DNA of 39,077 bases from a virus. Both the position numbers and the translations under genes were made by a program. The notes below the pieces were generated by a model. The model was not told the DNA's origin, searched no databases, and worked only from the letters and a program-made list of their open reading frames with translations. This document shows, in pieces, positions 1,813 to 17,545 of this stretch. The first letter of the stretch is position 1; the number at the start of each line of letters is the position of its first letter. The stretch lies in IMG/VR virus record IMGVR_UViG_3300035698_010051, positions 1 through 39,077 of that record; one strand, written 5' to 3'.

Positions 1813-3327
1813 CTATGCCACTCGCAAAATCGCGCCACCTGCAGCCGAAACAGTTAGCATAAGCACCCTTGGGCTTGCCATCCTTGACGTCTGTGCTAAC
1901 CGGTCCCCGGTTGTCAGCTCAATATCCCACTTCCCGCCGTCGATCCACTGGACCCGTGCAACATGCGCCGCGACCAGCCGACGGCGTACGGCTGCATCGT
2001 CGGCCGTCTCCAATAGCCGTCCCAGGTGCGGCAGTTCTTTTGCCGCGGCCTCGGCTATGGCGAAATGGCTCAATGGCCCGTCAGCGGCGTCTACGAGCGC
2101 CTGAGAGTGCGTCTGTGTCTCCGCCAGCAGACGGCGTGTGTCCGACAGACGGGTATTCCAGTGCGGTGCGTTGTCGGTGGTCACCAGGCCGTCAAGGAAT
2201 GCGCGCTCGATGCGTTCGATCTCTCGTGTGTGTGTCCGCTGCTGTTCCCCGAGGGCTCGGAGTTCCGGGTCCGTGCGGATGCGTTCAGCATCGCGCACCT
2301 TGCGGATAGCGGCAACTATCCGTGCAATGTCGTCGTCACGATATCGGCAGCCGGCCAGGGCTTCGAGGACCATGGCATCGAGAGCCGGGGCCGATGTACG
2401 CGTGGAACATACCGGGGCACTACTGCACTGATAGTAATAGTATTTCTTCCCGCCGCGGCCGTGTGTGCTGTAGGCGGTCATTACCTTGCCGCAGTGACAG
2501 CGGACGAGCCCGGCAAGCATGTACGGATAGCTCTGAGCATTCGGTCGCGCCTTGCCTTGCCGGCGTTTGGGAACGCTGGGTTGCACCGAATCCCAGAGAA
2601 CTCGGGGGATGATTGGCGGATGCTTGCCATCGTAGTCGGTATCGCCGTAACGGATGGTACCGATGTAGATGGGGTTACGCAGGATGTTCCAGAGCTGCTG
2701 GCGGGCAAGTCCCATGTCGCGACACAGTGCCGCGGGCGACTCACCGGCGGCGTAGCGCTCGTAGAGGGCGCGTACGGTCTTCGCTTTATCCGGATCGGGC
2801 TCGAGGATGTTCTGCCGCTTGCCTGGGCGCCGATAGCCGAATGGGGGAATGCCCCAGGGGATGCCCCCGGCTTCGCAGATCGAGATCATCTTCGCTTTCG
2901 TACGCTCTGAGTTGATTTCCCTTTCCCACTGCGCGAACACGAGAATGATATGCAGCATGGCGCGGCCGGTGGGCGATGCCATGTCCAGGTTCTGTGTAAC
3001 AGAAACAAGACCGCGGCCGGCGTCGCGCAACGAGCGCAAGAGCGGGATTGCATCGGTCAGGGACCGAGACAGCCGGTCAAGGTGGCGCACGATCAGCACA
3101 TCCCACGGAGCGACGCCTGCAGCCAGATCGGCGAGGATGCGTTGATAGCCCGGGCGCTTCGTGGATCCGCCGGAGTGAAACTCGTCCTCGATGACATCGA
3201 ACACGGCGTCGGGATCGCGAGCGAGTGCGTAGCTCCTGCAGGCCTGCACCTGGTCGGGTATGGACGTCTCGCCACCAGTCCAGGACGAGCCACGCGGTGA
3301 CACGCGTGCATAGATCAGGTAGCGCAT
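1813..3327 (-). CDS. int: Serine recombinase (phage integrase)
   Basis: A 504-residue serine recombinase. The N-terminal resolvase domain starts Y-A-R-V-S with the probable nucleophile Ser10, followed by the conserved S-I-P-D-Q region and the arginine cluster R-H-L-D-R-L-S-R-S. A Recombinase domain follows (G-I-P-P-F-G-Y-R-R near the middle), then a zinc-ribbon pattern (C-H-C-G-K-V-M ... Y-Y-Q-C ... C) and an Arg-rich helical C-terminus. Such enzymes integrate and excise phage genomes at attP/attB through a phosphoserine link. The gene is the last of the leftward early operon and converges on the lysis genes with only 24 bp between stops. No clear ribosome binding site precedes ATG 3327. The length fits the family. 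It could also act as a resolvase, but phage context favours integration. Confidence 0.9.
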   Translation of the reverse strand: MRYLIYARVSPRGSSWTGGETSIPDQVQACRSYALARDPDAVFDVIEDEFHSGGSTKRPGYQRILADLAAGVAPWDVLIVRHLDRLSRSLTDAIPLLRSLRDAGRGLVSVTQNLDMASPTGRAMLHIILVFAQWEREINSERTKAKMISICEAGGIPWGIPPFGYRRPGKRQNILEPDPDKAKTVRALYERYAAGESPAALCRDMGLARQQLWNILRNPIYIGTIRYGDTDYDGKHPPIIPRVLWDSVQPSVPKRRQGKARPNAQSYPYMLAGLVRCHCGKVMTAYSTHGRGGKKYYYYQCSSAPVCSTRTSAPALDAMVLEALAGCRYRDDDIARIVAAIRKVRDAERIRTDPELRALGEQQRTHTREIERIERAFLDGLVTTDNAPHWNTRLSDTRRLLAETQTHSQALVDAADGPLSHFAIAEAAAKELPHLGRLLETADDAAVRRRLVAAHVARVQWIDGGKWDIELTTGDRLAQTSRMASPRVLMLTVSAAGGAILRVA

Positions 3328-5660: not shown

Positions 5661-7950
5661 CGTCTGCCCCCTGCTCTTTTGCGGCCACAATCCCGCGGTC
5701 ATAGCGGAGGCTCAGCCCGCGTTCAGCACCGGATTTGATGCGGTTCCGAACGGTTTCGTCGGTGCAGTTCATTTCTTTGGCCATCATCGAAACGGTCACC
5801 TCGTCGTTTTCCGCAGCAAGGACTGTATGGGCCAGTGAACACGCGGCGTCGTTAGTGTTCTGAAGCGCCTCGATGGCGTGTGCGCGCTTTTTCGTGTCGA
5901 TCTCCCCGGTAGCTATTGCATCATTGAGAAGGTCTTCACTGTCAACATGTATCGGCCATTGGAACCACATACGTTTTGCGGGGAACAGCGGGAACTCGCG
6001 GAGGATGCCCTCTACGCGCCAGGCGGTAGCCATGTCGGCCGCGGCTACTGCTGCCGGGCGTACCTTGCGGATCGCATCGCCCAGGCCGTTCTGATTAGCC
6101 CAATGCGCGAGCTTCAGGCCGACAATCGCATCGTCCTGTGGACATTCGTCACGCCAGTTCGCGCTTACCTCATCCAGGGCGCCGGCCATTGCATCGCATT
6201 CCCAGCGGTTGTGCAGTTGCTTGCGAACGTGTTCGTCTACCTCCAGTTCAATGAGGTCCAGCAGCGCGTCGGGATCTCTGGCGAACACGCCGGAGCCGCT
6301 GCTTCGATCATGTGCACGCTTCTGGCCCTGGTCGCCCTTCGAATGATGATGGCAATAGATGACCGCCGCGCCAAGCTCGGAGCACACGCGATCAAACTGG
6401 TTACAGAACTTGGCCATCTCGTGTGCAGCGTTTTCGTCACCTGTTATCACCTTGTAAATGGGATCGATGATGATTGCAGCATACTCGCGTTTCAGCGCCC
6501 GTCGGATCAGCCTGGGCGCCAGTTCGTTCATTGGCAGCGCCTTGCCGCGCAGGTTCCAAATATCTACGTCTGCGGCGTGTGTCGGCTTGTAGTCCATACG
6601 GTGGTACAGGTCCACGAGCCGGTGTTTGGCGCTGGCGCCGTCAAGTTCGAGGTTGACATACAGAACGCGTCCTTGCTGACAGGGCCAGCCCAGCCATTGC
6701 TTGCCCTCTGCAATGGCAATGGCCAGCTGAAGCAGGAGGAAGCTCTTGCCGGCCTTGCTCGGGCCGGCCAAGAGCATCTTGTGACCTCTGCGCAGGATGC
6801 CGTTGATGATCGGTTCGGCCAACGGCGGTGGAGAGTCGAAGAAATCGGCGAGCGTTTCGACGTCCGGCAGATCGTCGTTGACAGCGGCAATCCAGTCAGC
6901 CCATTCGGCCCATGACGGCTGTCCGATGTTGGTCGCGACAAGCCACTGTTTCTTTCCGTTCCGGGTTGCGCCCGGCAGTCGTGACAACCTGGATGGATTA
7001 CGATTCTGCCGATCAATCACCAGGCCGTTCTTCTTGCATACGTCATAGAGGAAATCAACGCGCTTCCGGTATTCCTTGAAGTCCGGCGCCTCGACACGGA
7101 CGATCGCATGCAGGCTCTTGCCGCCTGAATGCACCAGGGCGGCTACAGGTAGCTCAAGCTGTCGATAGATTGCATACTGCCGTTCGATGCTGATGTCATC
7201 GGATTCGACCAGGGCGAAACGACATGCTGTCACGTGTTCATCACTGCAGCCGGCGCCGGATAGCGGATTGAACCGGATCCACGCGCCCGCCATACTGTTC
7301 CAGTCACCAACTACCTCGCCGAGATCCTTGGCGCATGCCAGGAGTTCCAGCAGCTCGCCGGCCGTGCGATCCCATACACCGCGTTTCGGCAGCCAGCGTT
7401 TGCCGCCGTCTTTGGTGTCCTGTTCCCAACTATCAGTATTGACCCCGACACGTTCATCACTGTTGAAGAGGGTCCGCAGGTACGTGGCAAGATCAGCACG
7501 GCCGTCCCAGGCCTCTCCCGGTTCCGGCGGCAGCGGCTGGTCTTGCAGCCACTCTTGACGTACAACCTGGAGCGCCGGCGTCACCGGCTCACTGTGCGGG
7601 CCGATAGTAGCGTCCCACGGCAGCGCCGCTCCGGCTACCCCGGGTGCCGGTGTGCTAACGTGCCCGCCCTGATCACGGCACAGCTTGACCAGTGTGCCCA
7701 CCCTGACCAGTGTGCCCACCCCTACGGCATGGCCGTTGCCGCCCTTGAACGACTTCCACTTGGCAGCCATCTCGCGTGGCTTATAGCGCTTGATGTCCTG
7801 CGCGCTCCACGTGTCCCAGTCACTGAGCTGTACACCGGCGTCCTTCAGTGCCATGCCGACAGCCAACCATTCCTCGTAATCGAGCGCCGCCGGCTTGATC
7901 TGTGCCAAGCACTCGCGGGCTGTAGTGGAGTCGTTTATATGGTCATTCAT
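5644..7950 (-). CDS. Primase-helicase fusion (PriCT/AEP-like primase plus RepA/DnaB-like RecA-fold helicase)
   Basis: A 768-residue replication protein. Residues ~15-75 resemble the PriCT_2 module ([12 protein letters not shown] ... W-D-T-W-S). Around 240-340 lies a primase-like segment with [12 protein letters not shown] and [13 protein letters not shown], as in archaeo-eukaryotic-type primases of phages and plasmids. From ~390 an AAA_25/RepA-type ATPase begins: Walker [11 protein letters not shown], Walker B I-I-I-D-P, then C-H-H-H-S-K-G. The C-terminus contains an HTH-like region ([16 protein letters not shown]). It should unwind DNA and lay primers at the replication fork. ATG 7950 overlaps the stop of the PP-loop gene (TGATG). 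No phage DNA polymerase is present, so host polymerase is presumably recruited. Confidence 0.85.
7686..7721. repeat. Perfect 18-bp tandem duplication inside the primase-helicase gene
   Basis: TGACCAGTGTGCCCACCC occurs twice back to back (7686-7703 and 7704-7721). It adds six residues, so the protein reads [11 protein letters not shown] between the PriCT-like and primase segments. The frame is preserved. This probably reflects replication slippage in a flexible linker. Confidence 0.85.
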
Positions 7951-8822
7951 CAATAAAGCCCCATCATGCAACCGTCATCGTCTTCGGGTAGCGCATTGCC
8001 GCTCTGCCACCACGCGAACAGTTCATCCGCAGTGGTGATCCGCGGCATTCCCGGCCAGCTTCGGCCCTTGTATGCGCCTCGCTTCATCAAGTCGCCGCGC
8101 CGCCGCCCCCAAAGCCGGTGAAACGCCCGTCGCCATGCCTGCTCGTACTTCGGCCAGCGGGCGAAGTCCCGAGCTACGCCTTTCGCGCCACCCATCGGGC
8201 AGCCGATGCACCCCAGGCGCTTGAAGCCCTCGTCATACAGGGAGCAGTACGGAATGTGCTCGGTGCGGATAAACGCCCACACATTCTCGGCGGTCCAGTC
8301 GATGATCGGGCTAAGGGCCCAGGACGGCTCTTTCCGTTTTCCATGGTTCTGCTCATTCGACCAACGCGTCAGCAGTTTCCATGTCTTACGGCGGCGATCC
8401 GACTCGGCCCAGCGAATGCCCAGCACCTTCACTTTGCCCGCGCCGCCACCCTCCTTAAGCTCCTGACAGCACCATCGTTGGTGCCGCAGCGGGTAGCCGC
8501 GCTCGTCTGCCATGACCGTAAAGAAGCATTTGGGCGGGTGATGCATTTCTACCTCGGCGTGCTCGCGTTTGATGAACCGCACCAGTTCCGGTGGGTCAAT
8601 GGTGGTCACTGAGTAGTGCCACTTGATCTCCACACCGGCCATCTCAGCCAACCGCTTGATGCACACACTGTCCTTGCCACCGCTAAAGCAGCCGTAGTAG
8701 CCGTCTTCCGCGTCCATTCCCAGCGCCAGCCCCCGGAACTCCCGCAGCCGCTGGCCGGCTACAGCGACCTTCTCGTCAATGCTTATGCCCCAGTCGTCGG
8801 CAAGTAGTGGTTGCTTTACCAT
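7950..8822 (-). CDS. PAPS reductase-like PP-loop protein (phage adenine-nucleotide alpha-hydrolase family)
   Basis: 290 residues from ATG 8822, which has an AGGAGAT site inside the end of the helicase gene. The PP-loop S-G-G-K-D-S is at residues 47-52. Downstream are the W-C-C-Q-E-L-K region and a cysteine motif R-L-G-C-I-G-C-P-M, followed by R-W-P-K-Y-E-Q-A-W-R-R-A-F. This matches the phosphoadenosine phosphosulfate reductase family proteins common in phages. PP-loop enzymes adenylate substrates for sulfur or nitrogen chemistry. Relatives include CysH and the DNA phosphorothioation protein DndC. The phage versions have no firmly known role. DNA or RNA thio-modification or interference with host sulfur metabolism are inferences. 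It sits in the replication operon between helicase and primase-helicase. Confidence 0.8.
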   Translation of the reverse strand: MVKQPLLADDWGISIDEKVAVAGQRLREFRGLALGMDAEDGYYGCFSGGKDSVCIKRLAEMAGVEIKWHYSVTTIDPPELVRFIKREHAEVEMHHPPKCFFTVMADERGYPLRHQRWCCQELKEGGGAGKVKVLGIRWAESDRRRKTWKLLTRWSNEQNHGKRKEPSWALSPIIDWTAENVWAFIRTEHIPYCSLYDEGFKRLGCIGCPMGGAKGVARDFARWPKYEQAWRRAFHRLWGRRRGDLMKRGAYKGRSWPGMPRITTADELFAWWQSGNALPEDDDGCMMGLY

Positions 8823-10429
8823 TGTGCCATCTCCTGCGGCACGGCCGGCCGGTACTCTTTCGGGCTGATTCCGGGCGGTACACGCCACATGTTGCCGGCA
8901 ATGCGGTCGATCAGCTTGCGGGCGCCGTCGAACCCCCAAGTGCCTACCGCCTGGAATCCGCGGCCTTCGAGGAACCGAATCTGTTTCGGTGTGGTCAGGT
9001 TCTCGGTCCGCCGTTTGGCCAATGTGTCCAGCAGCTTGGCAGCGTGTCCCTGACAGGTAACTTCGTCGGGAGAAATTCCGGACTTCTCAAGCCGCTTGAG
9101 CTGCGCCATTGCCGGCGGCCCCATTGCTCGCAGGTCGCCGGTATCCGGTATGTACTCGCGATCGGCGCCGATACTCATTTCGTACTGCAGCGGGTCGACC
9201 AGCGAGCGCTTACGCTGCTTCTGCTCTTCGAGCAACTTGCGTAGCGATTCCTCGCGTTCCTCGGTTGCCGTGCCTTCCGCGTCGGCTTCGGCTTCCAGCA
9301 GGTCCACCGAGCCATCCAGGCTGGCTGCGGCCATCAGCTCAGCCACGCGCCTACTGATCTCCGGATTCTCGCAGATAAGATGCGCCGGCCGGCAGAGTTC
9401 GTGGCGCTCAGAATGCCAAAGGAAATCGAGCAGAAGCAGATCCGGCTTGCCCGGGTGGATGCGTGTGCCGCGACCGCACATCTGTGCATAGAGACTGCGC
9501 ACCTTCGTCGGTCGCAGCACGCAGATACAGTCAACGTCCGGCTGATCCCAGCCTTCGGTCAACAGCATGGCGTTGCAGAGCACAGAGCCGGGCCCGGCCG
9601 CGTCAAACCACTTGAGCGTTTCCGCGCGATCCCGGCTTTCGCCGTTTACCTCGCGCACCGGGATACCGCGCGCAGCCAGCATGGCTTGGAACTTCTGCGA
9701 AGTCTGAATCAGCGGCAGGAATACCACCGTTTTGCGTGCCTGGCACTCCGTGGCAATGTGGTCGGCGATCTGCTCAAGGTACGGATCGAGCGCGGTGCCG
9801 ACAGCCTTCGCCTGGAAATCGCCGGCAGTGACCTTGACTGCATCCAGGTCGATCGTCAGTGGAATGGTTAGTGCGCGTATCGGGCAGAGCCACCCATCGC
9901 GGACAGCCGCAGGCAGTGAGTATTCGAATGCCAGCGTTTCGAAAACTTCCCCCAGGTCGCGCTTATCGCCCCTGTCGGCAGTTGCGGTGACACCCAGCAC
10001 CTTCGCGTCCGGGTAGTGATCGACCACCGCGCGGTAGCTGGCGCTTATGGCGTGGTGCGCTTCGTCAACGATCACGTGGGTGAAGTCATGACCATTGCGT
10101 CTGTGCTCGCGCTGCATGGTTTGCACACTGCCGACCACAACGTTGAACCAAGTATCGACCGCGGTGTTTTCAGCCTTCTCAACGCCGCAGCCGAGTCCTG
10201 TAACCTTTTCCAGCTTGTCAGCCGCCTGCTGTAGCAATTCGTGCCGATGCGCCAGCACCAGGCACCGGCCGCCGTGACGTACGGCATGCTCAATAATCGA
10301 GGAGAATACGATCGTCTTGCCGGTCCCTGTCGGCAACACCATCAGCGTTGCCCGCACTCCCTGTTCCCATTGTTCCAATACTGCTCTCGCGGCTGCCGTC
10401 TGGTATGGTCGAAGCGTCATGCTGCCCAC
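8816..10429 (-). CDS. SF2 DEAD/DEAH-family helicase
   Basis: A 537-residue superfamily 2 helicase. It opens with the Q-motif-like L-R-P-Y-Q, Walker A L-P-T-G-T-G-K-T (about residues 32-39), motif II V-D-E-A-H-H, motif III V-T-A-T, and in the second RecA fold C-G-R-G-T-R-I-H-P-G-K (motif VI). A highly charged Glu/Arg-rich region follows and the C-terminal ~100 residues are unassigned. It should translocate on or remodel DNA during replication or recombination (compare phage UvsW/RecQ-like or type III restriction-like helicases). GTG 10429 is preceded by GGGAGG at good spacing, and ATG 10420 is an alternative. The stop overlaps the PP-loop gene. Confidence 0.88.
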   Translation of the reverse strand: MGSMTLRPYQTAAARAVLEQWEQGVRATLMVLPTGTGKTIVFSSIIEHAVRHGGRCLVLAHRHELLQQAADKLEKVTGLGCGVEKAENTAVDTWFNVVVGSVQTMQREHRRNGHDFTHVIVDEAHHAISASYRAVVDHYPDAKVLGVTATADRGDKRDLGEVFETLAFEYSLPAAVRDGWLCPIRALTIPLTIDLDAVKVTAGDFQAKAVGTALDPYLEQIADHIATECQARKTVVFLPLIQTSQKFQAMLAARGIPVREVNGESRDRAETLKWFDAAGPGSVLCNAMLLTEGWDQPDVDCICVLRPTKVRSLYAQMCGRGTRIHPGKPDLLLLDFLWHSERHELCRPAHLICENPEISRRVAELMAAASLDGSVDLLEAEADAEGTATEEREESLRKLLEEQKQRKRSLVDPLQYEMSIGADREYIPDTGDLRAMGPPAMAQLKRLEKSGISPDEVTCQGHAAKLLDTLAKRRTENLTTPKQIRFLEGRGFQAVGTWGFDGARKLIDRIAGNMWRVPPGISPKEYRPAVPQEMAQW

Positions 10430-12744: not shown

Positions 12745-14094
12745 TTACCAGTCCTGCTCGCCGGCAGGCGCCGCCGCGGCCGGTGCTGCCGGTGCCTCGG
12801 GTTCCTGTCCACCGAGAACAAGTCCGTCCTCAATGATGATGCTGCATTCATCGCCGTGGCTGACTCGCGTGGCAATGGCCTGCAGGCCTTCGCCGGTCAA
12901 CCAAGTATTTAATTCGGTGAGCTGTTCCCGGTCCATGCGCTCAAGTCCGTCGAGTAGCACGAACCCACATTCAGGCTTAAGTGCGCGAACAATGGCCACG
13001 CCAGAGCGGATTTGTTCGGCACTGCTCATGCAGTCCCAGGCTTTGGCGTGGTAAGTGAGTGAGCTGTTTTCGACCGAGAGCCCGGCCAGCGGCATGTCGG
13101 CACTATCCAGCAGTGCGGATCGCCGTGCGCGCACTTCCTCCACGCGTCCCGAAAGCATTTTGTACATGTCGCGGGCCTGCTCGGCGTCTTCCAGTGCCTT
13201 GCGCTTGTCCAGGTTCTGCCGGATTTTCGCGTTGACCGTTTCCATGTCGGCTATGCGCGTTTCGATCTCGGCGGTCGATTCGTCCTCGCCTATCGGCCGC
13301 TCAGTTGCGCCCTTGACGATTGCGGCGGCGTGAATCGCTCCTGCGGAAAGCTCTTCGAGCCGTTTCTTCGCTTCGTCCAGTTGCGCCTCGAGCCGGTGTA
13401 CCTCTTCAAGCTGGCCCTTCATCGAAAGGCGGGCACGTTCAGCTTCATTTTTGCACTGGCCAATGCGCTGGCGGCTTGCCATCTTCGCTGCGTTGCGCTG
13501 CATGACGGCTTGTGATGCCTGGACCAGACCGGCCGCGGACAGCAGCTCGTCCGGTACGTCGTGGTATTCGGGCATTTCGGCTGCGTACTTCTCCTTCTGA
13601 TCGGCGACACGCCCCTGCGTGGTACGCTCATCGTAGACCAAGCGTTCTTCGTTGTCGAGAGCGGTAAGCTGGTCACCGATGCCCAGGATACGCAACAGCA
13701 CTTCGGCCTTGCTCTTTCCGTTCATCGCCAGGAACTTCGGCAGGTTCAGCGCCAGTTCCTCGACAAACGAGTCGAGCAGCCGCTGGCCGGCTTTCTCACC
13801 GGCCGGATCGGTGACGTGCAGGGCCGCGTTCTTCCCGCGGCGCTCGACCTTCAGCCCATTGGAGAGCATGACCTCCAGGCGTGCGTCAGCGGCACCGTCG
13901 TCGCGTTGGAGATTGGTGGGTCGGTACTTCTCACCGCCCAGGGCGTAGCAGATGCCGTCGAGGATGGATGTCTTCCCCTGGCAGTTGCCGCCGCCAATCA
14001 CCGTCAGCCCGGTGGACACCGGGTCCAGGTGCACAGCGCGCACCCGCTTCACGTTTTCTAATTCAAGTGATACGATCTTGATTCCGTTGTTCAC
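12745..14094 (-). CDS. RecF/Rad50 (SMC)-like ATPase
   Basis: 449 residues from GTG 14094, preceded by AGAGGCAGG. The N-terminal motif I-V-S-L-E-L-E-N-V-K-R-V is typical of RecF/SbcC proteins, and Walker A G-G-G-N-C-Q-G-K-T-S lies at 34-43. A long charged central region (roughly 180-330) is predicted coiled coil. The C-terminal half has a signature-like S-S-A-E-Q-I-R-S-G and Walker B F-V-L-L-D-G-L-E-R-M-D, where Gly replaces the usual Glu directly after Asp. An Ala/Pro-rich tail ends the protein. Such ATPases organise DNA ends or gaps. Rad50 normally works with a nuclease, yet no SbcD-like gene is visible. A longer upstream start is possible but would overlap the preceding TM gene. Confidence 0.8.
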   Translation of the reverse strand: MNNGIKIVSLELENVKRVRAVHLDPVSTGLTVIGGGNCQGKTSILDGICYALGGEKYRPTNLQRDDGAADARLEVMLSNGLKVERRGKNAALHVTDPAGEKAGQRLLDSFVEELALNLPKFLAMNGKSKAEVLLRILGIGDQLTALDNEERLVYDERTTQGRVADQKEKYAAEMPEYHDVPDELLSAAGLVQASQAVMQRNAAKMASRQRIGQCKNEAERARLSMKGQLEEVHRLEAQLDEAKKRLEELSAGAIHAAAIVKGATERPIGEDESTAEIETRIADMETVNAKIRQNLDKRKALEDAEQARDMYKMLSGRVEEVRARRSALLDSADMPLAGLSVENSSLTYHAKAWDCMSSAEQIRSGVAIVRALKPECGFVLLDGLERMDREQLTELNTWLTGEGLQAIATRVSHGDECSIIIEDGLVLGGQEPEAPAAPAAAAPAGEQDW

Positions 14095-14126
14095 AATCCT
14101 GCCTCTCTTTCCTGCCTCTTCTGTCT

Positions 14127-14327
14127 CTACCGACTCGCGAGCCACATCAGCGGCCCGCTGAACAGTGCGACGGCTGCCAGTACAGCCGTGACAACTACAA
14201 AGAGCGCCAAGCCCATCTCCAACTGCCGGATGCCGCGACGGCGCTCGATCTTCCACATCGCGCGTAAATGCTCTTGATGTCGGGCTTCGATGTCAATTCG
14301 CGTGCTGTAACTGCTCGTGCTGGTCAT
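14127..14327 (-). CDS. Small single-pass membrane protein (66 aa)
   Basis: ATG 14327 overlaps the preceding stop as ATGA. The first ~40 residues are polar with an Arg/His-rich helix (A-R-H-Q-E-H-L-R-A-M-W-K-I-E-R-R-R), followed by one TM segment of about 20 residues (A-L-F-V-V-V-T-A-V-L-A-A-V-A-L-F) near the C-terminus. It resembles tiny phage membrane proteins of unknown function. Early expression suggests host takeover or membrane tethering of a replication factor, but this is only inference. Confidence 0.55.
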   Translation of the reverse strand: MTSTSSYSTRIDIEARHQEHLRAMWKIERRRGIRQLEMGLALFVVVTAVLAAVALFSGPLMWLASR

Positions 14328-14602
14328 GGTGTCAGCCCCTGCTCTGCCAGTATCCGGCAATACCGTTCGTGTCGTTGTCTCCGCGCATTTCCCATAAACG
14401 AGGCCGCTATCCGGTCAACAAGTGCATCCGACAGCGGCGACAACGTGATAAGGGCCTGCCCGGGCGGGGAAGAAGGAAAGGGGGAGACGCCCGGACAGGC
14501 CGCAAAAGTAGCAGCGGCAGGATTTGAACCTGCGACCTCCAGGTTATGGGCCTGGCGAGATGACCTGACTTCTCCACGCTGCTGTGTCGTTGTGTCGCTC
14601 AT
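14324..14602 (-). CDS. Small ORF overlapping a tRNA gene; only the 3' part looks protein-like
   Basis: An open frame of 92 codons begins at ATG 14602, overlapping the previous stop (ATGA), and ends overlapping the next start (ATGA). However, its codons 7-32 are a same-strand tRNA gene (14509-14583) and read as the familiar spurious peptide H-N-L-E-V-A-G-S-N-P. The last ~40 codons (S-P-L-S-D-A-L-V-D-R-I-A-A-S-F ... R-I-L-A-E-Q-G-L-T-P) look like real protein. A TTG at 14443 would give a 39-residue product. The shorter form is more plausible. No function is recognised. Confidence 0.4.
   Translation of the reverse strand: MSDTTTQQRGEVRSSRQAHNLEVAGSNPAAATFAACPGVSPFPSSPPGQALITLSPLSDALVDRIAASFMGNARRQRHERYCRILAEQGLTP
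14453..14501. repeat. Large hairpin with 14-bp arms next to the tRNA 3' end
   Basis: Arms 14453-14466 (GGCCTGCCCGGGCG) and 14488-14501 (CGCCCGGACAGGCC) pair with one mismatch around a 21-nt loop that is all purine on the + strand. The nearer arm begins 7 nt beyond the tRNA 3' end in the tRNA's own direction of transcription. It could serve as a processing or stability element. A T-run typical of an intrinsic terminator is absent. Confidence 0.6.
14509..14583 (-). tRNA. tRNA-Met (anticodon CAU), initiator-like but atypical
   Basis: Reading the - strand from 14583 to 14509: acceptor AGCAGCG/CGCTGCT (7 bp), TG, D stem GAGA/TCTC with a loop containing GG, anticodon stem CCAGG/CCTGG around loop CCCATAA, a 5-nt variable region AGGTC, T stem GCAGG/CCTGC around TTCAAAT, and discriminator A. 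All four stems pair. The D-arm and T-arm sequences recall bacterial initiator tRNA-fMet. Odd points: position 33 is C instead of the near-universal U, the first pair is A1:U72 rather than the bacterial initiator C1/A72 mismatch, and the anticodon stem has A29:U41 instead of three G:C pairs. CCA is not encoded. tRNA-Ile with modified CAU cannot be excluded. Confidence 0.85.
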
Positions 14603-14943
14603 GAATCATCTCGGGATATCGCTGCCACTTGATCGGAAACCTGCGTCCTGCTACGTTTCTGTTCCGCAAGGGCGGCAAAATCAACGCCGCCACACATTTC
14701 GGAAGCCGTAAGAACAGGGGAGAAGGAAGATGCAAGACGCGAGAAAGTTCTTTGCAGAGAACCTGCGCATTCTCGGGCTGACAACACCAGCAGCGGTTCA
14801 GCAGAATCCAGAGAAGTACAACCTGTCTTTGGGGCTGGTTGCGCTGGCGGAGCAAACCGCAGAGACACATCGCCTGTTACCTGCTGTCCACAGACAATTG
14901 CAGATGCTCGGACGCTGACTTCACTGATCACTGTGTCGTTCAT
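14599..14943 (-). CDS. Hypothetical early protein (114 aa), uncertain
   Basis: ATG 14943 has a strong AAAAGGAG site at ideal spacing and overlaps the upstream HTH gene stop (ATGA). The stop at 14599 likewise overlaps an ATG. The product is Ser/Ala-rich with several Cys, and its C-terminal part (V-D-F-A-A-L-A-E-Q-K-R-S-R-T-Q-V) looks protein-like, while the middle does not. A + strand frame (14730-14918) with its own RBS lies opposite. Translation signals favour this strand, but composition is not decisive. No family is recognised. Confidence 0.45.
   Translation of the reverse strand: MNDTVISEVSVRASAIVCGQQVTGDVSLRFAPPAQPAPKTGCTSLDSAEPLLVLSARECAGSLQRTFSRLASSFSPVLTASEMCGGVDFAALAEQKRSRTQVSDQVAAISRDDS
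14730..14918 (+). CDS. Alternative small + strand ORF (62 aa), uncertain
   Basis: ATG 14730 follows GAGAAGGAAG. The 62-residue product is amphipathic and helical (F-F-A-E-N-L-R-I-L-G-L-T-T-P ... L-G-L-V-A-L-A-E-Q-T-A-E-T-H) and reads more like a natural protein than the frame opposite to it. It would be a lone + strand gene inside the leftward operon, which argues against it. Either strand may be real. No family is recognised. Confidence 0.35.
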   Translation: MQDARKFFAENLRILGLTTPAAVQQNPEKYNLSLGLVALAEQTAETHRLLPAVHRQLQMLGR

Positions 14944-15164
14944 GAATCACTCCTTTTGCCAGCGCCCGCCGTAGACGGGGGGGTGACAGACACTTGATGA
15001 AGAACCAAGTCCTGAGTTAAAAAAGGGGCCAAATCCGCGACATAGTACCATGCCCCCGGCCTCTTGGTTCTTGCTCGTTCTATCCGCCCTTGTTTTTCCC
15101 ATCGAATGAACGTTTGGCGATGTACCCCGCAGCGCCCTGCGGCTTCTGTTTGGTTGACTATCAC
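14940..15164 (-). CDS. Small HTH DNA-binding protein, excisionase/Cro-like (74 aa)
   Basis: GTG 15164 is preceded by AAGGAGAT at good spacing. The N-terminal half has an excisionase/MerR-type helix-turn-helix (N-Q-T-E-A-A-G-R-C-G-V-H-R-Q-T-F-I-R-W-E-K-Q-G-R-I), followed by a wing-like Y-Y-V-A-D-L. It is the first gene of the leftward early operon and is transcribed divergently from the CI-like repressor, the usual place for a Cro-type switch protein or an Xis acting with the integrase. The C-terminal ~20 residues are polar and probably disordered. Confidence 0.65.
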   Translation of the reverse strand: MIVNQTEAAGRCGVHRQTFIRWEKQGRIERARTKRPGAWYYVADLAPFLTQDLVLHQVSVTPPSTAGAGKRSDS

Positions 15165-15240
15165 TTCAAAATCTCCTTGAGGTTTCGTTGCTTTTTACCG
15201 TAATTGCGGCGTGATCGAGATACAAGTCCTCATGTCGTGA

Positions 15241-15270
15241 TTTGTAACATTTTTTACAAAGCTGTATATT
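15241..15270 (+). promoter_or_regulatory. Repressor promoter with overlapping palindromic operator
   Basis: A -35-like TTGTAA (15242-15247) and a -10-like TATATT (15265-15270) are spaced by exactly 17 bp, upstream of AAAGGAGG and ATG 15300. The perfect palindrome TTTGTAA-N6-TTACAAA (15241-15260) covers the -35 region, and a further TTACAAA half-site lies at 15280-15286. This is what an autoregulated lysogeny promoter would look like. The likely operator also sits upstream of the divergent HTH gene, so one protein could control both directions. Confidence 0.6.
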
Positions 15271-15299
15271 CGCAACACCTTACAAAGGAGGGGCTCACT

Positions 15300-15953
15300 A
15301 TGAGACTCGTGATAACAGAGAGCCTGGCCTGCTTTCTTGACCAACATCCACTGACAATGGAAGAAGTCGCAAATCGCGGTGGCGGTGCTCTCGATGCTCT
15401 CTATCGGATCCGACGCGAACGAAACGGATGGCTTTCTGATAAAACCACGGAAAAACTAGCGCGCGGACTTGGGGTGAGTGAGCTAGCCCTGATGCAGATT
15501 GCGATTGGCCAGCCACCGATGAACGCAGGAGGCGGCATCGTGGAAGTCCCGCTGCATCATACCGTACGCGTGTACGGGCTGGCCAATGCGCTCGCGCTCA
15601 ACGCGGATGTCATTTACGGCGATGAGATCCCCGAGAATGAAGCGGACCTCGACACGGTTACTGTCACCGACCGGCGCGTCTGCGCGGCCTTCCGGATCAG
15701 CGGCCAGAGCATGGAACCGGGGATCATCGACGGCGACGTGGTCCATTGTATCAAGCCGGATTCACTTGACGACATCGCTCAGGGCAAGACGGTCCTCTGC
15801 AAGTGGAACGACACGGTCGCGTGCAAGCGTTACCGCCGTTACGGTGATACCGTTGTCCTCGAATCGACCAACTCGGCCGGTGAGAACTACGAGATCACGG
15901 CAGCCGAAATCGAGTGGCTGCTTGTCGTCGTCAAGATCGAGAGGGACGCATAG
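15300..15953 (+). CDS. cI: CI/LexA-like phage repressor (S24 peptidase family)
   Basis: 217 residues from ATG 15300 behind AAAGGAGG. The N-terminal ~70 residues form a small HTH region (L-T-M-E-E-V-A-N-R-G-G-G-A-L-D-A-L-Y-R-I). The C-terminal domain is S24-type: R-I-S-G-Q-S-M-E-P-G-I-I-D-G-D with probable catalytic Ser137, and C-K-R-Y-R-R with Lys176, a spacing close to LexA. An Ala76-Gly77 pair could be the self-cleavage site but lies farther from the Ser than in LexA or lambda CI, so cleavage is uncertain. It should hold the divergent early operon off in the lysogen and respond to DNA damage. A palindromic operator overlaps its promoter. Confidence 0.88.
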   Translation: MRLVITESLACFLDQHPLTMEEVANRGGGALDALYRIRRERNGWLSDKTTEKLARGLGVSELALMQIAIGQPPMNAGGGIVEVPLHHTVRVYGLANALALNADVIYGDEIPENEADLDTVTVTDRRVCAAFRISGQSMEPGIIDGDVVHCIKPDSLDDIAQGKTVLCKWNDTVACKRYRRYGDTVVLESTNSAGENYEITAAEIEWLLVVVKIERDA

Positions 15954-16920: not shown

Positions 16921-17255
16921 GCAGTACACACACAGTTGTTCTCTCGCAGTTGGTGCAGTACTTTGTGTCAGGATCGACAACAGGTTTTCCCTGCCTGGAG
17001 GCGCACCCGGTGAAACAGACCAGTCCCCATGCGTCCGCATCCGACACCAACCAGCCGCGCCGTCTTTACCGTCAAACGCCGGCCTATTCCCCTGGAACCG
17101 TCACCATGCCCGGAACCATGGCCGTTTCGCACATTGTTGCTCATCGTTCCGACGACATGGCAATCAGCCTCGATGACGCCTTCATGCTCTCAGCCGACGC
17201 GTTACGTGCGATCTGGGACACGCCGGAGGAGGACGAAGCATGGAAGGACTTGTGA
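16917..17255 (+). CDS. Putative antitoxin of a MazF/PemK-type pair (112 aa)
   Basis: Starts at ATG 16917 (ATGA overlap with the preceding gene) and overlaps the toxin gene by 16 bp. The C-terminal ~32 residues, M-A-I-S-L-D-D-A-F ... W-D-T-P-E-E-D-E-A-W-K-D-L, have the acidic Trp-containing ending typical of antitoxins partnered with MazF/PemK-like toxins, which bind and block the toxin. The N-terminal ~75 residues are Pro/Thr/Ser-rich and match nothing I know. A shorter product from ATG 17107, 17119 or 17158 is possible. Gene order (antitoxin first, overlapping) is canonical. Confidence 0.6.
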   Translation: MSSTHTVVLSQLVQYFVSGSTTGFPCLEAHPVKQTSPHASASDTNQPRRLYRQTPAYSPGTVTMPGTMAVSHIVAHRSDDMAISLDDAFMLSADALRAIWDTPEEDEAWKDL

Positions 17256-17545
17256 GGGGGGATGTTGTCGTTGTTGATGTTGAGTTCAGCAATGCATCAG
17301 ACTCAAAGCGCAGGCCTGCTATGGTTGCCGCGGTCACAGAGATGAACGATCTCATCGTCTGTGCCATAACAAGCAAAGCACGCAAAGGCCCCTATCGCGT
17401 TCCCGTGGAAGCCTGCGACTTCGCCACTGGCTCTTTACCGCAACCATCTTCTGTGCGAGCGGATTTCCTTATGACCATTAGCCGTGGACGGGTCCATCAC
17501 CGTACCGGCCATCTTTCCAGCGGGCCGGTAGAAACTGAGGGTTGA
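17240..17545 (+). CDS. MazF/PemK-family toxin (endoribonuclease)
   Basis: 101 residues from ATG 17240 with a GGAGGAGG site. MazF-type hallmarks are present: R-G-D-V-V-V-V-D-V near the N-terminus, K-R-R-P-A-M-V (Arg24/25, likely catalytic) and I-V-C-A-I-T-S with Thr44, then V-R-A-D-F-L-M-T-I-S-R-G-R-V ... T-G-H-L-S. MazF-type toxins cut mRNA at specific short sequences and stop translation until the antitoxin returns. Placed between the repressor block and terminase, it may stabilise the lysogen or abort infection by rivals. All expected core motifs appear intact. Confidence 0.8.
   Translation: MEGLVRGDVVVVDVEFSNASDSKRRPAMVAAVTEMNDLIVCAITSKARKGPYRVPVEACDFATGSLPQPSSVRADFLMTISRGRVHHRTGHLSSGPVETEG

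What the first reader, a model, noticed from the sequence alone, without database searches (positions are those of the whole stretch)
14509..14583. Phage tRNA-Met with C33, A1:U72 and initiator-like arms
Seen: a fully paired cloverleaf with loop CCCATAA (C at position 33 where U is nearly universal), A1:U72 and discriminator A, while D and T arms resemble bacterial initiator tRNA. C33 and A1:U72 are known from eukaryotic-type initiators, not bacterial ones. It may be a tRNA with altered decoding, a decoy for a host tRNA-targeting defence, or a decaying copy.
Basis: partly seen in the sequence, partly recalled or inferred. Interest (0 to 1): 0.7.

Follow-up and report, generated by a model that had tools for sequence, protein, structure and literature searches.

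The report
Phage-encoded initiator tRNA with C33
This temperate phage carries an intact copy of the tRNA that starts every bacterial protein, with one unusual letter beside the anticodon; the same change turns up repeatedly in unrelated phages, which fits phages carrying their own altered starter tRNA, perhaps one that host tRNA-cutting defences cannot destroy.

Summary
On the minus strand, 14583..14509, lies a fully paired 75-nt tRNA with loop CCCATAA (C33), A1:U72, A73 and no encoded CCA. Covariance models classify it as an initiator (87.4 bits against 65.4 for a Met/Ile-CAU elongator model), and it is not decayed. The premise that C33 is unknown in bacterial initiators is wrong: C33 initiators occur in Weissella, Leuconostoc, Endomicrobia, DPANN archaea and at least 40 viral contigs, and in P. 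aeruginosa phage D3. Even so, C33 is enriched in viruses: 9 of 65 viral initiators from two unbiased scans, against 1 of 273 genomes from three phyla. It is scattered over the tRNA tree as a random label would be, although that tree is poorly resolved. In a viral subset with the loop left open, position 33 was only U or C (36 and 5 of 41). Best explanation: a functional phage-supplied initiator tRNA whose anticodon loop is altered within what the ribosome tolerates. The reason for the alteration, possibly evasion of anticodon nucleases such as VapC, is inferred and untested. A1:U72 is rare but not unique. Novelty is modest: a recurrent, apparently undescribed variant of phage-encoded initiator tRNA.

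The parts
14509..14583 (-). Initiator-type tRNA (CAU anticodon), C33, A1:U72, A73, no encoded CCA
   Evidence: ARAGORN, Rfam, initiator CM 87.4 bits vs elongator/Ile2 CM 65.4 bits
14453..14501 (-). 14-bp hairpin 7 nt downstream of the tRNA 3' end (arms 14488-14501 and 14453-14466, one G-U pair); possible processing or termination element, function unknown
   Evidence: MFE fold; sequence
12745..14256 (-). SbcC/SMC-like ATPase gene downstream of the tRNA on the same strand
   Evidence: phrog_1499, phrog_77; Pfam AAA_23
15204..15953 (+). CI/LexA-type repressor (Peptidase_S24), divergent from the tRNA side
1813..3327 (-). Large serine recombinase (integrase), about 11 kb from the tRNA
   Evidence: phrog_95; Pfam Resolvase, Recombinase, Zn_ribbon

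Best explanation
A temperate, podovirus-type phage encodes one complete initiator tRNA (tRNAfMet type). It most likely serves as a functional supplement or replacement for the host initiator. Its anticodon loop carries U33C, a change within the pyrimidine tolerance seen at this position. SHOWN: identity as initiator, intact structure, and recurrence and enrichment of the same loop change in other viral initiators. INFERRED: that it is transcribed, end-processed with CCA added by the host, charged with Met and formylated (G2:C71, C3:G70 and A11:U24 kept; only a weak A:U pair at 1:72). INFERRED with less confidence: that the loop change is kept because it keeps initiation going when host initiator tRNA is cleaved in its anticodon loop by VapC-like or other tRNA-targeting defences. 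About 0.75 for a functional initiator; about 0.35 for nuclease evasion as the reason for C33. The confidence given below is for the functional-initiator reading.
For: Isotype: 87.4 bits (initiator CM) vs 65.4 (Met/Ile-CAU elongator CM); an E. coli tRNA-fMet-type gene scores 93.4 vs 65.1. In E. coli genomes it matches a median of 4 places, the listed hits annotated tRNA-Met; I read these as the initiator gene copies. C33 recurs: 40 viral contigs, 37 of them 500 bp or more from a contig end, and Pseudomonas phage D3, three D3-like phages and Janthinobacterium phage Donnerlittchen. Enrichment: 5/30 and 4/35 viral vs 1/109, 0/106 and 0/58 in Verrucomicrobiota, Actinomycetota and Bacillota with the centre genomes left out; Fisher p = 2e-6. 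Scatter: 32 C33 rows need 29 changes, shuffled mean 29.7. Open-loop viral subset: position 33 U 36, C 5, no purine; loop different from CTCATAA in 16/41 vs only the centre genome in 62 Verrucomicrobiota genomes. Functional C33 initiators are plausible because C33 is the only pattern-matching copy in Leuconostoc, Convivina, Fructobacillus and others. Phage tRNAs rescuing phages from tRNA-degrading defence has been shown experimentally for Tyr and Lys (PMC11555353).
Against: No expression data and no minus-strand promoter match upstream. The host is unknown, so the phage tRNA cannot be compared with its host's own initiator. Two initiator hallmarks are imperfect: 1:72 is paired, and 29:41 is A:U. 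Viral and cellular samples differ in host phyla and Pseudomonadota was not sampled; some C33 phages may infect C33 hosts. The two viral scans used narrower D-arm/stem patterns than the genome samples. U33 remains the majority in viral initiators. PMC10264068 reports that phages of Shigella generally avoid encoding tRNA-fMet, the VapC target.
Confidence: 0.72

Rival explanations
1. Host-derived neutral passenger: an initiator tRNA picked up from a host whose own initiator has C33 (as in Leuconostocaceae, Endomicrobia, DPANN) and tolerated without a specific benefit.
For: C33 initiators exist as the only pattern-matching copy in several cellular lineages. tRNA genes are often carried by phages.
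Against: C33 is scattered over the tRNA tree.
Confidence: 0.2
2. tRNA-dependent lysogeny: the phage integrates into and disrupts a host initiator gene and its own tRNA makes good the loss (as in PMC10865867).
For: The phage is temperate (repressor and integrase) and carries exactly one tRNA.
Against: The published cases use tyrosine integrases; this phage has a large serine recombinase about 11 kb from the tRNA. Many bacteria have several initiator genes.
Confidence: 0.06
3. Decoy or sponge for a tRNA-targeting host defence, not used in translation.
For: A single solitary tRNA with an altered loop; phage tRNAs are linked to tRNA-targeting defences (PMC10264068, PMC11555353).
Against: Features needed for formylation and P-site selection (G2:C71, C3:G70, A11:U24, G30:C40, G31:C39) are kept. 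A decoy for anticodon nucleases would be expected to keep the cleaved loop unchanged.
Confidence: 0.07
4. Decaying pseudo-tRNA or sequencing error at position 33.
For: No encoded CCA; unusual acceptor stem.
Against: 21 of 21 pairs intact; 63.5 bits Rfam and 87.4 bits initiator CM; identical in a second assembled contig; the same substitution in some 40 viral contigs.
Confidence: 0.03

Closest known systems
Bacterial initiator tRNA (tRNAfMet), e.g. E. coli metZWV/metY
   Same: CAU anticodon, A11:U24, G2:C71, C3:G70, G30:C40, G31:C39, A37, A38, near-identical arms
   Different: C33 not U33; A1:U72 not C1xA72; A29:U41 not G29:C41 (A29:U41 is common in other initiators); A13:U22 not C13:G22; no encoded CCA
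tRNA-Met of Pseudomonas phage D3 and D3-like phages FBPa47, Haboob, phPA-G
   Same: CCCATAA loop, A13:U22, initiator type by CM, phage-borne
   Different: C1-U72 mismatch, encoded CCA, next to tRNA-Gly/Asn/Thr, shorter D loop
Phage tRNAs with anticodon-loop changes (van den Berg et al. 2023, PMC10264068)
   Same: Phage tRNA with a loop substitution relative to the cellular norm
   Different: That study centres on tRNA-rich mycobacteriophages and reports that Shigella phages generally avoid encoding the VapC target fMet; nuclease sensitivity not tested here
Eukaryotic initiator tRNA
   Same: C33 (stated for eukaryotic tRNA-Met-i in PMC9023262) and A1:U72 (general knowledge)
   Different: Bacterial-type TTCAAAT T loop where eukaryotic Met-i has A54; best explained as convergence

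Membership tests
Bacterial-type initiator tRNA | Overall sequence and structure profile (isotype) | tested here: met
   Initiator CM 87.4 bits vs elongator/Ile2 CM 65.4 bits
Bacterial-type initiator tRNA | CAU anticodon | tested here: met
Bacterial-type initiator tRNA | A11:U24, G2:C71, C3:G70 (formylation determinants, PMC7949028) | tested here: met
   Read from sequence; determinants
Bacterial-type initiator tRNA | Three G:C pairs 29:41, 30:40, 31:39 | tested here: inconclusive
   Two of three; 29:41 is A:U, as in 56 of 98 viral U33 initiators and in the TCAGG..CCT form of the Verrucomicrobiota sample
Bacterial-type initiator tRNA | Unpaired 1:72 (C1xA72 in E. coli) | tested here: not met
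   A1:U72 pair. 1:72 pairs, mostly U:A, also occur in 18 of 98 viral U33 and 6 of 25 cellular C33 initiators, so this is not strictly defining
Bacterial-type initiator tRNA | Charged with Met, formylated, used at the P site | not testable with these tools
   Needs biochemistry
Phage tRNA evading anticodon nucleases | Resistant to a nuclease that cuts the host tRNA | not testable with these tools
   Needs a cleavage assay
Phage tRNA evading anticodon nucleases | Anticodon-loop substitution relative to the host tRNA | tested here: inconclusive
   C33 differs from the usual bacterial U33, but the host is unknown
tRNA-dependent lysogeny | Tyrosine integrase with attB in a host tRNA gene of the same isotype | tested here: not met
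   Large serine recombinase; attachment site not known
Pseudo-tRNA | Broken stems or low covariance score | tested here: not met
   21 of 21 pairs; 63.5 bits against a cut-off of 29

The most novel reading that the evidence does not exclude
Phages repeatedly evolve their own initiator tRNAs with altered anticodon loops (above all U33C, also changes at 32, 37 and 38) that stay competent for initiation but escape host nucleases that cut initiator tRNA, so an initiation-level defence and counter-defence conflict is common and has gone unnoticed.
Probability: 0.25. Interest if true: 0.75.

Novelty: new variant of a known kind. Interest (0 to 1): 0.42.

Why it matters
U33 makes the U-turn of the anticodon loop and is nearly universal. 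A recurrent, pyrimidine-only substitution in phage-borne initiator tRNAs, enriched over three sampled cellular phyla and scattered across phage lineages, points to selection on this position in phages. That gives a direct test of whether phages escape initiator-cutting toxins such as VapC. It also corrects the idea that C33 is a eukaryote-only trait of initiators.

Tried and rejected
Decay and sequencing error: rejected. Elongator Met or Ile2-CAU: rejected by CM. tRNA-dependent lysogeny: disfavoured. Host assignment: tblastn of primase, terminase and integrase against cultured phages gave only matches under 60% identity, to phages of many hosts; SbcC-like relatives at 48% identity (L003, L004) have no tRNA, nor had any of the examined terminase relatives a tRNA-Met (one had tRNA-Tyr). 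Single clade of C33 phage tRNAs: no sign of clustering, but the tree has few columns and only 7 starred branches. C33 associated with 1:72 pairing: no clear difference, 7/29 vs 18/98 paired. Consensus promoter: none found on the minus strand. A Pseudomonadota baseline could not be drawn: the E. coli locus was not held as a genome. Literature: no paper found that names C33 in phage or bacterial initiators, in a library that lacks most subscription journals.

Full report
OBSERVATION. The tRNA is present on the minus strand at 14583..14509. It is the only tRNA in the 39-kb record and scores 63.5 bits against Rfam RF00005 (cut-off 29). Numbered: A1 G2 C3 A4 G5 C6 G7, T8 G9, D stem GAGA/TCTC (A11:U24, A13:U22), anticodon stem CCAGG/CCTGG (A29:U41, G30:C40, G31:C39), loop C32 C33 C34 A35 U36 A37 A38, T stem GCAGG/CCTGC, loop TTCAAAT, 3' strand CGCTGCT (A1:U72), A73, then CTT. 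All 21 pairs are Watson-Crick. The stems appear in the minimum-free-energy fold with natural flanks. A second contig record, 99.98% identical over 10,540 bases, has the same tRNA, which argues against an assembly error, although it may be from the same sample.

CONTEXT. The record is a temperate phage with podovirus-type structural genes: a large serine recombinase (1813-3327 -), primase, helicase, Sak4-like and SbcC-like genes on the minus strand, an S24/CI-type repressor (15204-15953 +), a MazF/PemK-like gene (17240-17545 +), and terminase, head-tail adaptor, major head and tail genes on the plus strand. The tRNA sits near the head of the leftward gene block. Seven nt downstream lies a 14-bp hairpin (14501-14453). 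An ORF called across the tRNA (14324-14602 -) is read through the tRNA itself and has no Pfam match.

IDENTITY. I built one covariance model from 25 U33 initiators of viral contigs and one from 22 Met/Ile-CAU elongator-type tRNAs. The window tRNA scores 87.4 and 65.4 bits. An E. coli initiator-type gene, U33 and C1/A72, scores 93.4 and 65.1. Phage D3's tRNA-Met scores 80.2 and 59.3. The window tRNA is therefore of the initiator type. In E. coli genomes it finds a median of four places per genome, the listed hits annotated tRNA-Met; I take these to be the initiator gene copies.

IS C33 REALLY FOREIGN TO BACTERIA? No. In 30 of these genomes checked whole, C33 is the only pattern-matching copy in most, while G011, G013, G014, G028 and G029 have one C33 and one U33 copy. 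A1:U72 together with C33 was seen only in this phage, viral contig L124 and two DPANN/archaeal MAG loci, L337 and L344.

IS C33 SPECIAL TO PHAGES? Partly. The C33 pattern hits 40 viral contigs, one of them the near-identical copy of this window, 37 of them 500 bp or more from a contig end, so most are not host genes at prophage borders. Two scans that allow either base give C33 in 5 of 30 and 4 of 35 loci (C33 membership read from the complete scan). With an either-base pattern, evenly drawn genomes give 1 of 109 in Verrucomicrobiota, 0 of 106 in Actinomycetota and 0 of 58 in Bacillota, leaving out the centre genome that had been chosen for having C33. Fisher's exact p is 2e-6. Related sequences make this p-value optimistic, the viral scans used narrower patterns, one of the five includes the near-identical copy of the window itself, and host phyla are not matched. 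On a tree built without position 33, 32 C33 rows need 29 changes, as many as random labels (mean 29.7); with 73 columns the tree is poorly resolved, so this supports many origins without proving them.

LOOP CONSTRAINT. With loop positions 32, 33, 37 and 38 left open, a viral subset of 41 initiators has CTCATAA 25, CCCATAA 5, CTCATAT 4, TTCATAA 2, TTCATGT 2, GTCATAG 1, TTCATAC 1, TTCATGC 1: position 33 is always a pyrimidine. An open-loop search in Verrucomicrobiota gives CTCATAA in every matching genome except the C33 centre (62 genomes with a match). Phage initiator loops are thus more diverse than these cellular ones, yet not random at 33. That speaks against decay and for use on the ribosome.

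CULTURED EXAMPLES. Phage D3 and three D3-like phages recorded on Pseudomonas carry C33 with a C1-U72 mismatch and encoded CCA. Janthinobacterium phage Donnerlittchen has C33. Many other cultured phages carry U33. I found no paper that remarks on this, but the library lacks most subscription journals.

MECHANISM. Most likely the phage supplies an extra initiator tRNA. The elements that PMC7949028 lists for formylation (G2:C71, C3:G70, A11:U24) are kept, the 1:72 pair is only A:U, and two of three G:C pairs of the anticodon stem are kept, with A29:U41 a common variant. Why C33? Toxins of the VapC family cut initiator tRNA in the anticodon stem-loop (PMC7180214), and van den Berg et al. (PMC10264068) propose that phage tRNAs evade anticodon nucleases through loop mutations. 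Phage tRNAs do rescue phages from tRNA-degrading defences in experiments with Tyr and Lys (PMC11555353). The C33 initiator fits that scheme, but PMC10264068 also reports that Shigella phages generally avoid encoding fMet. No nuclease, host or cleavage data bear on this phage, so I put the evasion reading at about 0.35.

RIVALS. A passenger acquired from a C33 host cannot be excluded because the host is unknown. tRNA-dependent lysogeny (PMC10865867) is disfavoured by the serine recombinase. A decoy role would not call for keeping the formylation and P-site elements. Pseudogene and error are rejected.

NOVELTY. A phage-encoded initiator tRNA is a known kind. The recurrent C33 form, its enrichment and the pyrimidine-only pattern seem undescribed. 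I rate it a new variant of a known kind, interest 0.42, higher if host-matched surveys and cleavage tests confirm selection.

Noticed in passing
14453-14501, strand -: Strong 14-bp hairpin starting 7 nt after the tRNA 3' end, without a T run after it; may be a processing or termination element.
   Followed up: partly
14591-14608 and 14932-14949: 18-nt direct repeat (94% identical) at the start codons of two minus-strand ORFs that overlap by ATGA (114-aa ORF 14599-14943 and the ORF read through the tRNA); the tRNA begins just after the second start codon, so it may have been inserted into or replaced a small gene.
   Followed up: no
17240-17545 +: MazF/PemK-like toxin gene (Pfam PF02452) next to the terminase gene; the short ORF just upstream could encode an antitoxin.
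   Followed up: no
7950-8939 -: PAPS-reductase-family gene in the replication block, a known phage auxiliary or takeover gene type.
   Followed up: no
L454, L459, L460, L461, L455, L458, L463: Phage initiator-type tRNAs with other loop changes (CTCATAT, TTCATGT, TTCATGC).
   Followed up: partly
G011, G013, G014, G028, G029: Clostridia, Lentilactobacillus and an actinomycete MAG carry one U33 and one C33 initiator-type gene; in some they lie on the same contig about 0.6-1.3 kb apart.
   Followed up: no
L350 (Flavobacteriaceae MAG): C33 initiator-type tRNA whose pattern-matched stretch is identical to that of viral contig L093; the stretch may be a phage contig binned with the MAG.
   Followed up: no
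L412 (Pseudanabaena phage Pan5), 1501-1574: An initiator-type tRNA lies under a CDS annotated as omega transcriptional repressor and is not annotated as tRNA.
   Followed up: no
L409 (phage CBW1004C-Prop1), about 3000-3076: Unannotated initiator-like tRNA with loop TTCATAC and a TGCAAAT T loop (position 55 changed).
   Followed up: no
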